Notes under the pieces: generated by a model
Seen by the model: only the letters and a program-made list of their open reading frames with translations
Told to the model about the DNA's origin: nothing
Database searches by the model: none
Shown: one piece after another, positions 52,869-57,113 of the stretch
Numbering within the stretch: the stretch's first letter is position 1
Layout of the letters: each line of letters starts with the position of its first letter
Source: Flavisolibacter ginsengisoli DSM 18119
GTDB lineage: Bacteria > Bacteroidota > Bacteroidia > Chitinophagales > Chitinophagaceae
NCBI RefSeq assembly: GCF_900129295.1
Contig: NZ_FQUU01000003.1
Span: forward strand, 310,001-374,000
Direction of reading: 5' to 3'
DNA: 64,000 nt
Position numbers and translations under genes: made by a program

Positions 52869-52967
52869 AAGCAGATAAGTTCTTATAGATCATTGAAGAT
52901 AATAGAAAGGAATTATGTTTTGTTTCTGCGGCAAAACTTTTGCATTAACAAAGAAAAAGACGAACTC

Positions 52968-53135
52968 ATGAAAAATTATTCATTATTATGGCTTAGCGTA
53001 CTGGCAATGGCAATGACCCTTAGCTCCTGCGAAGTAGTGGGTGGAATCTTTAAGGCAGGTATGTGGGTAGGTATTCTGGTGGTAGTGGTTGTTGTTGGCT
53101 TAATATTATGGCTTGTTGGTAGAGGCAGACGGTAA
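52968..53135 (+). CDS. Small lipoprotein with a C-terminal membrane helix, 55 residues
   Basis: The real start is the ATG at 52968; a longer frame from 52893 is not supported. The N-terminus MKNYSLLWLSVLAMAMTLSS leads to a lipobox LSSC, followed by EVVGGIFKAGMWVG and a valine-rich helix ILVVVVVVGLILWLVGRGRR. This SSCEVVGGIFKAG pattern recurs in small proteins of Bacteroidota as I recall, usually annotated as hypothetical. It lies divergent from comM and is followed by a long hairpin terminator. Confidence 0.7.
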   Translation: MKNYSLLWLSVLAMAMTLSSCEVVGGIFKAGMWVGILVVVVVVGLILWLVGRGRR

Positions 53136-53155: not shown

Positions 53156-53220
53156 ATCCATGGTGTACTAATAGTTGCATGTAACTGCAAAAGTTCGGAA
53201 CACCATGGATTTTATTTTAG
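53156..53220 (+). terminator. Long stem-loop terminator after the small lipoprotein
   Basis: Outer arms ATCCATGGTGT (53156-53166) and ACACCATGGAT (53200-53210), an inner AGTT / AACT stem, then TTTATTTT. Confidence 0.75.
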
Positions 53221-53331: not shown

Positions 53332-54189
53332 GTGCTTCACCCATCTACCATACAATTACTTAGATTCCATTTTTCCTTGTTCCTGTTACCGGTTTATTTG
53401 TTTGCTATAAGCCAGGTTCCAACGGTTGATTTCACTAAAGCAATCATAATATTTATAATCCTCCATTTTTTAGTTTATCCATCCAGCAATGGATATAACT
53501 CTTATATGGACAGGGATACATCGCCTATAGGAGGGTTAAAAAACCCTTTGCAACCTACTAGGCAATTATACCGTATTACCATCATCATGGATGTAATAGC
53601 AGTTCTAACAGGGTTGCTCATTTCAATTTATTTTTCAGTGGGTATTTTACTCTACATATTGGCTTCAAGGGCTTATAGTTCCAGGCAGATACGATTAAAA
53701 CGCTACCCGGTTATAGGCTTTCTTACAGTGTTTATTTTCCAGGGCGCCCTGGTCTTTTATATTACTTATATAGGAACAAACCCATCCACTGATTTATATG
53801 CACCCATATTGCCTTGTATAATTTCCAGTTGCCTGATAGCAGCTTTATATCCACTGACGCAGATCTATCAACACAAAGAAGATAAGGACGATGGAGTAAC
53901 TACTATCAGTTACCTGGTTGGAAAACGGGGGACATTTATTTTAAGTATGTGTCTTTTCCTTGGGGCCACTTTCCTTATGTATTTGTTTTTTACACAAAGA
54001 CATGAAATGAACATTTGGTTCAGATACCTGTTGATTATGTTACCAGTGGTATTGTTTTTTTTAACGTGGATGCGAAAGGTCTGGATATCCGAAAAGGAGG
54101 CAAACTTTAAAAACAGTTTGCGCATGAATGTGATAGCTACCTTATGTACAACCATTTTTTTTGTAACCCTTATTTTATTTAAACCTTGA
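53332..54189 (+). CDS. UbiA-like membrane prenyltransferase (cluster gene 1)
   Basis: 285 residues with about eight hydrophobic helices. The UbiA-type acidic motifs are recognisable: NGYNSYMDRDTSPIGG at residues 53-68 and YQHKEDKDDGVTTISYLVGK at about 185-205. UbiA enzymes attach prenyl or related chains to aromatic or other acceptors. The start is a GTG at 53332; no ATG is in frame nearby. Its stop overlaps the TTG start of the type III PKS gene by four bases (TTGA), so the two are translationally coupled. The motifs deviate from the canonical NDxxDxxxD, so substrate and even activity are uncertain. Confidence 0.75.
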   Translation: MLHPSTIQLLRFHFSLFLLPVYLFAISQVPTVDFTKAIIIFIILHFLVYPSSNGYNSYMDRDTSPIGGLKNPLQPTRQLYRITIIMDVIAVLTGLLISIYFSVGILLYILASRAYSSRQIRLKRYPVIGFLTVFIFQGALVFYITYIGTNPSTDLYAPILPCIISSCLIAALYPLTQIYQHKEDKDDGVTTISYLVGKRGTFILSMCLFLGATFLMYLFFTQRHEMNIWFRYLLIMLPVVLFFLTWMRKVWISEKEANFKNSLRMNVIATLCTTIFFVTLILFKP

Positions 54190-55262
54190 GCCAAATTATC
54201 TCCATAGGTACCGCAGTTCCTTCGTTTTGCCATCAACAAATGGATATACTCAGTTTTATGCAAACAGTGTATGCTGTTACTGAGACAGATAAAAGGAAAA
54301 TGCGCTTTTTATACAAACAATCGGGGATCAACCAGCGGTTTTCAGTTATTTCTGATTACAGTAAGGGAATTAACGATTGGAAGTTTTATCCCCAGTCAGA
54401 GAATCTTGAACCCTTCCCTTCGCTGGAGCATCGTATGGCTATCTATAGCAAGCATGCACCCTTGCTTTCTGTAGATGCCATAAGGGATTGCCTGGGGCAT
54501 ACACATCACCCTCAAACAATCACTCATTTACTCACTGTTAGTTGTACAGGAATGAGTGCTCCGGGATTAGATCTGCAGGTTATGGAACTGATGGACCTTA
54601 ATAAATCCATCGTCAGGAGCTCGATCAATTTTATGGGATGTTATGCTGCAATTCATGCATTAAAAATGGCAAATGCTATTTGTCTTGCAGACAAGCAATC
54701 AAAAGTATTGATCGTTTGTACTGAGTTGTGTACCCTACATTTTCAAAGAGATGCTACAACCGATAACCTTACCTCATCGCTATTATTTGGTGATGGTTCT
54801 GCCGCGGTATTGGTAACCGGGGATCACGAGGGAGGATGGTACCTTGACGACTTTTATAGTGAAGTAATTCCTAAAGGAAAGAGAGATATGGCATGGGAAA
54901 TCTCTTCCAGTGGTTTCCAGATGACTTTAAGCGGATATGTACCTGACCTGATAGAAGAAGATTTCAAATCAATACTGGAAAGAGCAATGCAAAAACAAGG
55001 TCTTTCTATAGAGGAGGTTTCACACTGGTGTATACATCCCGGGGGGAAGAAAATACTTGAAGCAGTCGCAAAGAGCTTAGGAATTAATAATGATCGATTA
55101 AAGGAGTCATATGAAGTACTTCATGATTATGGAAACATTTCATCAGCTTCCATATTATTTGTACTCAAAAAGATTTTTCAAAAGAGCGAAAAAATGACAA
55201 AGCTGGTAGGTGCAGCTTTCGGGCCGGGACTTACTGTAGAAACATTTTCAGTTCATAATTGA
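54186..55262 (+). CDS. Type III polyketide synthase (cluster gene 2)
   Basis: 358 residues. The catalytic triad of the chalcone-synthase superfamily is complete: cysteine C152 in INFMGCYAAIHALK, histidine H284 in WCIHPGGKKILE and asparagine N317 in HDYGNISSASI. The PKS signature GVDLxxMELMDL-like SAPGLDLQVMELMDL and the LFGDGSAAVLV block are present, and the C-terminus AAFGPGLTVETF is typical. It extends an acyl-CoA starter with malonyl-CoA and cyclises the product, commonly to pyrones or resorcinols. The TTG start at 54186 is supported by the family N-terminus IISIGTAVPSF following directly. Confidence 0.95.
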   Translation: MSQIISIGTAVPSFCHQQMDILSFMQTVYAVTETDKRKMRFLYKQSGINQRFSVISDYSKGINDWKFYPQSENLEPFPSLEHRMAIYSKHAPLLSVDAIRDCLGHTHHPQTITHLLTVSCTGMSAPGLDLQVMELMDLNKSIVRSSINFMGCYAAIHALKMANAICLADKQSKVLIVCTELCTLHFQRDATTDNLTSSLLFGDGSAAVLVTGDHEGGWYLDDFYSEVIPKGKRDMAWEISSSGFQMTLSGYVPDLIEEDFKSILERAMQKQGLSIEEVSHWCIHPGGKKILEAVAKSLGINNDRLKESYEVLHDYGNISSASILFVLKKIFQKSEKMTKLVGAAFGPGLTVETFSVHN

Positions 55263-55975
55263 TGTTCACTTCGGCTAAACGATCTTACCAAAAGGAACTG
55301 CTGGATAGTTCTGACATACCCTTCAGGGATATCATGCATAACATGCAGGAACTGGAGTTTATTAACAGGTATTTGGGTGGACATGCCATTACTATTGATG
55401 GTGTCAATAAATTGATCAGTGAATATGATGTGCGTGAACCAATTAAGATAGTGGAGTTGGGTTGTGGTGGTGGTGATAACCTCAATGCCATACAAAAGTG
55501 GGCATGTAAAAGAAATATTCCTGTATTGCTGACGGGAATAGATATTAACCAGGAATGTATTCAATATGCATCATCAAAGCCTGAAAATGCAAATATTCAA
55601 TTCATTCATTCAGATTACCGGCAAGTTCACTTCCAGGCGAAACATGATATACTTTTCTCTTCATTATTTTGCCACCATTTCGATGACATAGAATTGGTAG
55701 ATATGCTAAAGTATATGCAACTCAACAGTTCATTCGGGTTTTTTATCAATGACCTCCATCGTCACCCCATTGCCTATTATTTGATAAAATGGCTTACGCA
55801 ATTGTTTTCCAGTAGTTACCTGGTTAAAAATGATGCACCATTATCTGTTAGCAGAGGGTTTACAAGAAAAGACTGGACATATTTATTTAAGAAAGCTGAA
55901 ATATCAACATATGCCTCTGAGTGGAAATGGGCTTTCCGGTGGTTAATAACTGTTCATACTTATGGAATTGGCTGA
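55262..55975 (+). CDS. Class I SAM-dependent methyltransferase (cluster gene 3)
   Basis: 237 residues from ATG 55262, whose A is shared with the PKS stop (TGATG). The SAM-binding motif I is IVELGCGGGDNL at about 60-71, followed by LLTGIDINQECIQYA (motif II) and IQFIHSDYRQ. Downstream FSSLFCHHFDD and the C-terminal ASEWKWAFRW are as in small-molecule O- or C-methyltransferases. Given the context, methylation of a polyketide-derived phenol is the natural guess. The gene order PKS then methyltransferase then flavoprotein equals that of srsA-srsB-srsC in Streptomyces griseus. Confidence 0.88.
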   Translation: MFTSAKRSYQKELLDSSDIPFRDIMHNMQELEFINRYLGGHAITIDGVNKLISEYDVREPIKIVELGCGGGDNLNAIQKWACKRNIPVLLTGIDINQECIQYASSKPENANIQFIHSDYRQVHFQAKHDILFSSLFCHHFDDIELVDMLKYMQLNSSFGFFINDLHRHPIAYYLIKWLTQLFSSSYLVKNDAPLSVSRGFTRKDWTYLFKKAEISTYASEWKWAFRWLITVHTYGIG

Positions 55976-57113
55976 CCAATATGATGTTGCTATTATAGGA
56001 GGGGGCCTTGCCGGCCTGTCCGGTGCTATAGAACTTCGTATGGCTGGCTATAATGTAATTTTATTTGAACAGGAAAAGTACCCATTTCACAAAGTATGTG
56101 GTGAGTATATCAGTCATGAATCTTTAAATTATTTAGAGCATCTAGGCATTCCCATTAGCCAAATGAAAGTCCCTTTCATTGACAACCTTGTTCTGACAGC
56201 TCCCAATGGACGCGCATTTAAAACGGCCTTACCCTTAGGAGGCTTTGGTATCAGCCGGTATGAATTGGATAATGCTTTGGCTCAAAAGGCCAAGAAGCTT
56301 GGAGTAGTAGTATTGGAGGAAACAAAGGTGGAGAAGGTTGAATTTAATGAACAGTTCACTATTCATTTTAATTCCAGGATTACTAATATAGGTGTTGTTA
56401 AGTCAAAAGTTTGTTGTGCAGCATGGGGGAAGAAAAGCAATATTGACCGGAAATGGAACAGGACCTTTTTAAGTAAGAACAACAAGCGTCTGAACAATTA
56501 CATTGCAGTCAAATACCATATCAGGTCTGCCTGGCCTGAAGGAATTATAGGACTTCATAATTTCAAAGATGGGTATTGTGGAATCTCAAATATTGAAAAT
56601 GGATTGACCTGTTTATGCTATATGACCACCGCAGGTAATTTGAAAAAAAGTAATAACAGTGTTGAGCAATTAGAGCAATGCATTTTAATGGATAATCCTC
56701 ATTTGAAAGAGATATTCACTTCCTGTACAAGGATCAAAGAGTTTCCGATAACTATTTCTCAAATCAATTTCCTATCTAAGACAAAGATTGAAAATCATGT
56801 GATCATGATAGGAGATGCAGCAGGATTGATAACTCCTCTTTGTGGAAATGGAATGAGCATAGCATTGCATACCGGGAAGATAGTATCACGTCTGGTAATT
56901 CTTTTTTTAATGGGAAAGATTACAAGAGCAAATCTTGAAAAGCAATATAGCAGGGAATGGCATCGTCAGTTTTCGAAGCGATTACGAAGAGGCAGACAAC
57001 TGCAGTGGTTCTTTGGGCGGAAATGGATCAGCAATTCTTTTGTTAGCTTTTTCCAGGTATTTCCATTTTTAGCTAAGCGGGTAATACGAATGACACACGG
57101 AAGACCTTTTTAA
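55962..57113 (+). CDS. FAD-dependent oxidoreductase of the geranylgeranyl-reductase / group A monooxygenase type (cluster gene 4)
   Basis: 383 residues, overlapping the methyltransferase by 14 bases. FAD-binding AIIGGGLAGLSGAIEL near residue 10, the HKVCGEYIS motif typical of geranylgeranyl reductases and halogenase-like flavoproteins, and GDAAGLITPLCGNGMSIALH at about 285-304. It could hydroxylate an aromatic ring (as in quinone-forming phenolic-lipid pathways) or reduce double bonds of a prenyl chain, the latter fitting the UbiA-like gene. Sequence alone does not decide. It ends the cluster; 42 bases later an unrelated CoA-binding gene starts. Confidence 0.85.
   Translation: MELADQYDVAIIGGGLAGLSGAIELRMAGYNVILFEQEKYPFHKVCGEYISHESLNYLEHLGIPISQMKVPFIDNLVLTAPNGRAFKTALPLGGFGISRYELDNALAQKAKKLGVVVLEETKVEKVEFNEQFTIHFNSRITNIGVVKSKVCCAAWGKKSNIDRKWNRTFLSKNNKRLNNYIAVKYHIRSAWPEGIIGLHNFKDGYCGISNIENGLTCLCYMTTAGNLKKSNNSVEQLEQCILMDNPHLKEIFTSCTRIKEFPITISQINFLSKTKIENHVIMIGDAAGLITPLCGNGMSIALHTGKIVSRLVILFLMGKITRANLEKQYSREWHRQFSKRLRRGRQLQWFFGRKWISNSFVSFFQVFPFLAKRVIRMTHGRPF

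What the first reader, a model, noticed from the sequence alone, without database searches (positions are those of the whole stretch)
53332..57113. Overlapping four-gene type III PKS cluster with a UbiA-like prenyltransferase
Seen: four plus-strand genes overlap by 4, 1 and 14 bases, the products being a UbiA-like membrane prenyltransferase, a type III PKS with complete C152-H284-N317 triad, a SAM methyltransferase and an FAD oxidoreductase. Known: srsA-srsB-srsC of Streptomyces griseus has the same PKS - methyltransferase - flavoprotein order and makes methylated phenolic lipid quinones. Inference: this operon makes a membrane-bound methylated, oxidised phenol or quinone, perhaps prenylated. 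The extra UbiA-like gene with unusual acidic motifs, and the GGR-type flavoprotein, suggest a product different from known phenolic lipids.
Basis: partly seen in the sequence, partly recalled or inferred. Interest (0 to 1): 0.72.

Follow-up and report, generated by a model that had tools for sequence, protein, structure and literature searches.

The report
Prenylated phenolic-lipid operon in Chitinophagaceae
A Chitinophagaceae bacterium carries a compact, evolutionarily conserved four-gene operon that most likely builds a methylated, oxidised and prenylated phenolic membrane lipid; a similar set of four enzymes is known from actinobacteria, so this is a new variant of a known kind rather than a new kind.

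Summary
Four plus-strand genes at 53332-57113 overlap by 4, 1 and 14 bases and encode a UbiA-family membrane protein, a type III PKS with C152/H284/N317, a class I methyltransferase and an FAD enzyme. The operon is real: in the best 80 named loci found with the UbiA protein, 80 have the PKS downstream and 75 have all four genes in this order; the other five stop at contig ends. In 296 Bacteroidota genomes, 21 of 21 with the UbiA subfamily also have the FAD enzyme and the PKS, including five where the UbiA gene lies elsewhere. The UbiA protein does not look housekeeping: the genome shows futalosine-route menaquinone synthesis and another UbiA for it. Most likely product: a methylated, hydroxylated, prenylated 5-alkylresorcinol lipid. 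The chemistry is inferred, not shown.

The parts
53332..54189 (+). UbiA-superfamily integral-membrane prenyltransferase-like protein, GTG start, divergent acidic motifs
   Evidence: PF01040 66.6 bits; R11, N53, N56, D60, D62, Y115, S116, K123 in 42 of 42 rows; Q180, D184, D187 in 41 of 42, one X; AlphaFold2 pLDDT 95.1, pTM 0.92; AfUbiA 4tq4, TM 0.72
54186..55262 (+). type III polyketide synthase, TTG start, C152-H284-N317, W237 at the position aligned with a glycine of stilbene synthases
55262..55975 (+). class I SAM-dependent methyltransferase (best NCBIfam model PRK06202, 124.5 bits, below its cut-off of 243)
55962..57113 (+). FAD-dependent oxidoreductase, probably a ring hydroxylase
   Evidence: (AlphaFold2 pLDDT 91.1, pTM 0.91)

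Best explanation
A four-gene operon for a membrane phenolic lipid of the agq kind. The type III PKS extends a fatty-acyl starter with malonyl units and closes a resorcinol ring (5-alkylresorcinol). The methyltransferase methylates the ring (O or C). The FAD enzyme hydroxylates the ring to a methoxy- or methyl-hydroquinone, which can be oxidised to the quinone. The UbiA-like protein transfers a prenyl group from a housekeeping prenyl diphosphate onto the phenol inside the membrane. Shown here: gene content, conserved order, co-occurrence, kept catalytic residues, predicted UbiA fold. Inferred: every reaction, the order of steps, starter length, prenyl length and biological role.
For: Operon conserved in order and strand: 75 of 80 named loci complete, 5 cut by contig ends; 14 of 16 same-genus loci fetched and 6 of 17 genomes of other genera in the family. 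In 296 Bacteroidota genomes, 21 of 21 with the UbiA subfamily have the FAD enzyme and the PKS, and 63 of 63 with the FAD enzyme have the PKS. In 5 of the 21 the UbiA gene is on another contig or more than 300 kb away from the PKS (G126, G200, G212, G220, G244), so the link is not only physical. PKS genes of UbiA-bearing genomes (23 rows) form one clade (97/96) with one plasmid row nested inside. UbiA keeps counterparts of residues that bind Mg2+/diphosphate or line the reaction site in AfUbiA: R22, N68, D72, Y139, S140, K146, D202 correspond to R11, N56, D60, Y115, S116, K123, D184 (roles from passages of PMC4106721; R11, N56 and D60 matched by spacing only). W237 is Trp in 23 of 26 rows and in Steely1; PMC5916927 (passages) says a Trp essential for resorcinol formation in ArsB is kept in SrsA, FtpA, PKS10 and PKS11. 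Two polyprenyl synthase genes could supply donors.
Against: No product is known. Q180 replaces D198 of AfUbiA and S64 stands where the third Asp of NDxxDxxxD is expected, so transferase activity is not certain; the position-198 counterpart is essential in EcMenA (PMC4106721, passages). That W237 is the ArsB Trp position rests on recalled chalcone-synthase numbering. In the planctomycete work the role of the FAD oxidoreductase stayed unknown and no oxidation to alkylquinones was seen on co-expression (PMC10896814, passages and section 14), which gives no support to a hydroxylase. Profile and fold neighbours of the FAD enzyme include halogenases. The Psychrobacter plasmid PKS lies inside the UbiA-type clade, yet no UbiA relative was found in the plasmid collection (its chromosome was not searched). 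O- versus C-transfer cannot be told. The hypergeometric figures ignore shared ancestry.
Confidence: 0.55

Rival explanations
1. The PKS makes an alkylpyrone or acylphloroglucinol instead of a resorcinol, and the other three enzymes decorate that ring.
For: Best solved relatives are mixed (Steely1 160.6 bits, stilbene synthase 145.1, PKS18 141.3) and the best NCBIfam model is DpgA far below its cut-off (158.2 against 425), so sequence alone does not fix the product.
Against: W237 is shared with Steely1, and a Trp is reported for resorcinol-forming bacterial enzymes (same position by inference). Planctomycete PKSs from operons with a methyltransferase and an FAD oxidoreductase gave alkylresorcinols (PMC10896814, passages); one such operon, of Paludisphaera, is homologous in all three genes, though that species was not among the tested strains I saw named.
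Confidence: 0.2
2. The FAD enzyme is a prenyl-chain reductase of the geranylgeranyl-reductase kind, so that the product bears a partly saturated prenyl group as in the dihydrogeranyl compounds of Actinoplanes.
For: Best NCBIfam match is TIGR02032 (105.3 bits, below the 158.8 cut-off), and geranylgeranyl-reductase-like structures are among the profile hits (3oz2, 1.8e-12). The agq products are dihydrogeranylated (compound name in PMC7692728 and PMC10896814).
Against: The FAD enzyme occurs without this UbiA subfamily in 42 of 63 genomes, often in FAD-MT-PKS operons, and on a Hymenobacter plasmid beside an isonitrile synthase. The fold search puts halogenases and monooxygenases first.
Confidence: 0.18
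3. The UbiA-like protein no longer transfers a prenyl group to the PKS product; it is a binding, transport or cyclase-like relative, and the lipid is a plain methylated alkylquinone as in srs.
For: D198 of AfUbiA is replaced by Q180, and the third Asp of motif 1 is missing. Related PKS-MT-FAD sets exist without this UbiA in other families.
Against: Counterparts R11, N56, D60, Y115, S116, K123 and D184 are kept and an extra D62 is invariant. In AfUbiA the D198A change is reported as comparatively mild for GPP binding, although its EcMenA counterpart is essential (PMC4106721, passages).
Confidence: 0.14
4. The UbiA-like gene is a housekeeping quinone or heme enzyme that happens to sit beside the PKS.
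For: It has weak hits to MenA models (PRK06080 32.8 bits, TIGR00751 22.7, both far below cut-off).
Against: The genome has heme O synthase and a UbiA_other/MqnP-type enzyme over the TIGR01475 cut-off elsewhere; MqnC is over its cut-off and menB is not. The subfamily is in only 21 of 296 Bacteroidota genomes and tracks the PKS and FAD genes.
Confidence: 0.02

Closest known systems
agqABCD of Actinoplanes missouriensis (alkyl-O-dihydrogeranyl-methoxyhydroquinones; Awakawa et al. 2011, not seen; known here from citations and passages in PMC7692728, PMC10896814 and PMC4044012)
   Same: One type III PKS plus three further genes; the alkylresorcinol is prenylated and hydroxylated, and the product name shows a methoxy group; a membrane-bound prenyltransferase O-prenylates the polyketide.
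   Different: Actinobacterial (orthologous clusters also reported in Phytohabitans, PMC7692728); gene order and sequences could not be compared here; prenyl length, O- or C-attachment and chain reduction are unknown for the window operon.
hierridin operon hidABC of picocyanobacteria and the three-gene type III PKS operons of Planctomycetota
   Same: Same three-enzyme core; hidC>hidA>hidB is the same PKS-MT-oxidoreductase order (PMC8086630, passages). The Paludisphaera plasmid operon is homologous in all three: PKS 34%, MT 24% (1e-18), FAD 25% (2e-18).
   Different: No prenyltransferase is described as part of them, except in one cyanobacterium (Raphidiopsis) in PMC8086630.
srsABC of Streptomyces griseus
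   Same: PKS, methyltransferase and flavoprotein in one operon making methylated phenolic lipids and quinones.
   Different: SrsB is of the isoprenylcysteine carboxyl methyltransferase family (PMC6669644, passages); the window enzyme is class I. The srs operon is described as three core genes, without UbiA.
loseolamycin region of Micromonospora endolithica
   Same: The gene table lists a UbiA-family prenyltransferase, a methyltransferase and an acyl-CoA dehydrogenase next to the type III PKS losA (PMC7587189, passages).
   Different: An acyl-CoA dehydrogenase instead of the FAD monooxygenase-like protein; whether those neighbours belong to the pathway was not read.

Membership tests
type III polyketide synthase | Both chalcone/stilbene synthase domains and an intact Cys-His-Asn triad | tested here: met
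UbiA superfamily | PF01040 over the curated cut-off and a multi-helix UbiA fold | tested here: met
   66.6 bits against 34.2; AlphaFold2 pLDDT 95.1 with TM 0.72 to AfUbiA
UbiA superfamily | Canonical NDxxDxxxD and DxxxD motifs | tested here: not met
   NxxxDxD (N56, D60, D62) and Q180xxxD184 instead; predicted fold and other site residues are kept, so it is filed as a divergent superfamily member on score and fold
MenA or other housekeeping UbiA enzyme | Match over an equivalog cut-off, or sole candidate for menaquinone or heme O synthesis | tested here: not met
srs operon | SrsB-type (isoprenylcysteine carboxyl) methyltransferase | tested here: not met
   Class I Methyltransf_25/11 in 29 of 29 alignment members, no such family among the 11 families hit; SrsB family from PMC6669644 passages
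hierridin-like / planctomycete three-gene operon | Homologous PKS, methyltransferase and FAD oxidoreductase side by side | tested here: met
   tblastn to the Paludisphaera operon: all three match. No hidABC sequence was compared
agqABCD | Type III PKS, methyltransferase, hydroxylase and prenyltransferase in one cluster | tested here: inconclusive
   The four enzyme classes are present here by sequence; hydroxylase activity is inferred, and the agq composition is taken from passages and recall
agqABCD | Orthology of the four proteins | not testable with these tools
   No named Actinoplanes record was reached (one search failed: the centre must be a genome handle)
agqABCD | Product an O-prenylated alkyl-methoxyhydroquinone | not testable with these tools
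   Needs lipid chemistry
geranylgeranyl reductase family | TIGR02032 over its cut-off | tested here: not met
   105.3 against 158.8 bits
FADH2-dependent halogenase | Catalytic Lys in the segment after the first FAD motif (recalled) | tested here: inconclusive
   Profile 60-92 is 32 positions against 58 residues in PltA, unaligned; no column of residues 60-95 has Lys in more than 11 of 38 rows. The Lys position is recalled, not looked up

The most novel reading that the evidence does not exclude
A good part of the Chitinophagaceae and scattered other Bacteroidota make a so far undescribed class of prenylated alkyl-(hydro)quinone lipids, attached by a UbiA subfamily with a rebuilt second metal site (QxxxD in place of DxxxD, plus an extra Asp in motif 1), giving these bacteria a second redox-active membrane lipid beside menaquinone.
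Probability: 0.3. Interest if true: 0.65.

Novelty: new variant of a known kind. Interest (0 to 1): 0.45.

Why it matters
If the reading is right, a common family of environmental Bacteroidota makes a meroterpenoid-like membrane lipid that I found no description of, and a plant-cannabinoid-like logic (type III PKS plus UbiA transferase; recalled) is widespread in bacteria. The UbiA subfamily would also test how much of the second aspartate motif is needed for prenyl transfer. The operon is short and isolated, and named cultured strains carry it, so a deletion plus lipidomics could settle it.

Tried and rejected
Housekeeping MenA: rejected. srs orthology: rejected on methyltransferase family. 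Geranylgeranyl reductase: not supported but kept as a rival. Halogenase: considered because; no conserved Lys in the expected segment, left open. Viral or plasmid origin of the UbiA: no relative found in viral contigs or in the plasmid collection at 1e-3. Extra genes of the operon: in the 75 loci with a complete PKS ORF the most recurrent neighbours within about 9 kb are the CoA-binding protein (36 of 75), the RNase H-like protein (29), a lipoyl-domain protein that looks like a dehydrogenase E2 subunit (26), YihA (22) and, lower down, a MarR/GbsR-like regulator (14) (the E2 and MarR names are by eye); none is as constant as the four. Trp at H284 minus 3 (W281) was first looked at as the ArsB position and dropped for W237.

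In print: paper searches showed, among the rows listed (some lists were cut), no paper on this Bacteroidota cluster; one search was for UbiA structures. PMC9248904, a survey of Bacteroidetes clusters, has no occurrence of T3PKS, type III, prenyltransferase or resorcinol in its main text. antiSMASH-type lists of type III PKS regions in Bacteroidota are in print, for example Reichenbachiella (PMC10752948), Kordia (PMC7477175) and Aquimarina (PMC9323603) (passages); none of the three holds the terms UbiA or prenyltransferase. The library holds open-licence papers only.
Full report
What is there. Four plus-strand genes at 53332-57113 overlap by 4, 1 and 14 bases. They encode a UbiA-family membrane protein (GTG start), a type III PKS (TTG start), a class I methyltransferase and an FAD enzyme; all pass Pfam cut-offs. 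The N-termini chosen agree with relatives. The PKS triad C152/H284/N317 is intact.

Whose genome. The window is G000:C20:310001-374000, a 4.68 Mb genome that is 99.99% complete. One of its same-genus relatives, G006, has a contig of 445121 bases, the length of the Flavisolibacter longurius BT320 contig found, with the match at the same place; so the window lies in or beside Flavisolibacter, Chitinophagaceae. Genus lines are those of the tool, not of NCBI.

It is a conserved operon. In 80 of 80 the PKS follows on the same strand; in 75 all four genes are present in the window's order; the other five end at contig ends. Seventy of the 80 have four complete ORFs (one, L202, has a broken PKS frame, the rest mostly contig ends); start-stop overlap is seen in 54 of 70 (UbiA-PKS), 37 of 70 (PKS-MT) and 39 of 70 (MT-FAD) by a mechanical choice of start codons. 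In the same genus 14 of 16 fetched loci have all four and two are cut by contig ends; in other genera of the family 6 of 17 genomes have them. Two family members (G018, G022) have instead a distant FAD-MT-PKS set with no UbiA in the 16-17 kb fetched (their whole genomes were not searched for UbiA). Outside the family, G036 has PKS-MT-FAD-UbiA and G048 has UbiA on the other strand on a short contig.

Co-occurrence beyond linkage. The same 296 Bacteroidota genomes were searched with the UbiA, FAD and PKS alignments. At E 1e-20 the UbiA search rang in 47: 21 at 263 bits or more, taken as the subfamily, and 26, all of one family (f42), at 91-130 bits. I counted the 21 and set the 26 aside; all 26 have a PKS, none has the FAD enzyme at 1e-40, and in the two UbiA loci looked at the PKS is not beside it. 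The FAD enzyme (E 1e-40) is in 63 and the PKS (E 1e-40, several types) in 134. All 21 UbiA genomes have both others, and all 63 FAD genomes have the PKS (hypergeometric 3.7e-16 for UbiA within FAD, uncorrected for ancestry). In 16 of the 21 the UbiA gene is next to the PKS; in five it is on another contig or more than 300 kb away (in G244 it sits 1.7 kb from a contig end), and in three (G058, G067, G072) the FAD gene is on another contig. One FAD copy beside a PKS (G126) has an internal stop, with a second intact copy elsewhere.

Phylogeny. In a tree of 47 PKS proteins that I chose from the loci in hand (G220's PKS was missed by my ORF caller and is absent), the 23 rows from UbiA-bearing genomes fall in one clade (97/96) with a single other row, a Psychrobacter plasmid PKS. 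The Bacteroidota PKS-MT-FAD sets without UbiA fall in two other clades (10 and 4 rows), one lone PKS (L252) falls with Streptomyces rows, and the two f42 rows with Deinococcus. The tool warned of long branches. The simplest account is one recruitment of this UbiA into an older PKS-MT-FAD unit. That older unit exists outside the phylum: Deinococcus PKS-MT-FAD, Paludisphaera MT-FAD-PKS, Psychrobacter with the PKS facing FAD and MT. tblastn finds all three proteins in Paludisphaera and Psychrobacter, and PKS and MT but not FAD at E 1e-3 in Deinococcus.

The UbiA protein. It does not look housekeeping. The genome has five other PF01040 matches, four over the cut-off, among them heme O synthase and a UbiA_other/MqnP-type protein over the TIGR01475 cut-off. 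MqnC is over its cut-off (447.3 against 428.1) and menB is not (130.7 against 342.7), which points to the futalosine menaquinone route. The AlphaFold2 model (pLDDT 95.1, pTM 0.92) has the UbiA fold (AfUbiA 4tq4 TM 0.72, archaeal DGGGP synthase 7bpu TM 0.63). Against AfUbiA, whose residue roles I took from passages of PMC4106721, R22, N68, D72, Y139, S140, K146 and D202 have counterparts R11, N56, D60, Y115, S116, K123 and D184; D198 is Q180 and the third Asp of motif 1 is S64, with an extra invariant D62. The alignment covers the second motif and, for 4tq3, Y139-K146; the counterparts in motif 1 and R11 are by spacing. I read this as an active transferase with an altered second metal site.

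The PKS. W237 aligns with a glycine of stilbene synthases (G256 in chalcone-synthase numbering, recalled) and with a Trp in Steely1. It is Trp in 23 of 26 rows and Phe in the three rows of the FAD-MT-PKS subtype. PMC5916927 (passages) says a Trp essential for resorcinol formation in ArsB is kept in SrsA, FtpA, PKS10 and PKS11; that it is the same position is my inference. This favours a resorcinol ring. The starter is unknown; among the 22 most recurrent neighbour groups I saw no acyl-CoA ligase or carrier protein (by eye; not searched by family).

The methyltransferase and the FAD enzyme. The methyltransferase is a class I enzyme in 29 of 29 alignment members, whereas SrsB is an isoprenylcysteine carboxyl methyltransferase (PMC6669644, passages), so the srs comparison is one of logic, not descent. 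The FAD enzyme's best NCBIfam match is the geranylgeranyl-reductase subfamily, below its cut-off. By profile and by fold its nearest solved relatives are flavin halogenases and monooxygenases at about 16-20% identity in the fold search. It is kept in 42 genomes that lack this UbiA subfamily, and a 40% relative lies beside an isonitrile synthase on a Hymenobacter plasmid. A ring hydroxylase explains this best; prenyl reduction or halogenation is not excluded, and the planctomycete FAD oxidoreductase showed no identified activity on co-expression (PMC10896814).

Known systems. The four enzyme classes match agqABCD of Actinoplanes missouriensis. I did not see that paper. PMC10896814 (section 14) says the AgqA alkylresorcinol is prenylated and hydroxylated; PMC4044012 (passages) cites it for O-prenylation by a membrane-bound enzyme studied in vitro; PMC7692728 (passages) names agqB to agqD with agqA and reports orthologous clusters in four Phytohabitans strains, whose extracts did not show the compounds. 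The assignment of agqB, C and D to single functions is from memory. The three-gene core matches hierridin and planctomycete operons (PMC8086630 and PMC10896814, passages), and PMC8086630 notes one cyanobacterial cluster with a prenyltransferase. So the kind is known. Type III PKS regions of Bacteroidota appear in published lists, but I found no description of this four-gene operon or its UbiA subfamily in the searches named under Tried and rejected.

Verdict. Real, conserved, well bounded; product inferred as a methylated, oxidised, prenylated alkylresorcinol lipid; new variant of a known kind.

Noticed in passing
L279:4881-6065 (Hymenobacter swuensis plasmid pHsw1): A 40% relative of the window's FAD enzyme sits behind an L-tyrosine/L-tryptophan isonitrile synthase and a TauD-type dioxygenase, so this flavoprotein family may serve another aromatic pathway as well.
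   Followed up: no
L248:7840-8706, L250:7735-8613: A family outside the class (f42) carries a weaker relative of the UbiA protein with an NSYWDKDEGPIGGL-type motif in the two loci aligned, away from its type III PKS there; 26 of 26 such genomes also have the PKS but no FAD relative at 1e-40.
   Followed up: partly
L055, L056, L057, L255-L261: A second, distant PKS type with the order FAD-MT-PKS and no UbiA relative in the stretch fetched, with Phe instead of Trp at position 237 in the three rows checked; two members of the window's own family (G018, G022) have it.
   Followed up: partly
window 53156-53210: Perfect 11-base inverted repeat (ATCCATGGTGT / ACACCATGGAT) followed by T-rich sequence between the small gene 52893-53135 and the operon; read by eye, outside the loop limit of the terminator scan.
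   Followed up: no
L275 (Psychrobacter urativorans plasmid 5): The plasmid PKS falls inside the UbiA-bearing Bacteroidota clade although no UbiA relative was found in the plasmid collection; this looks like transfer between phyla without the prenyltransferase. The chromosome was not searched.
   Followed up: partly
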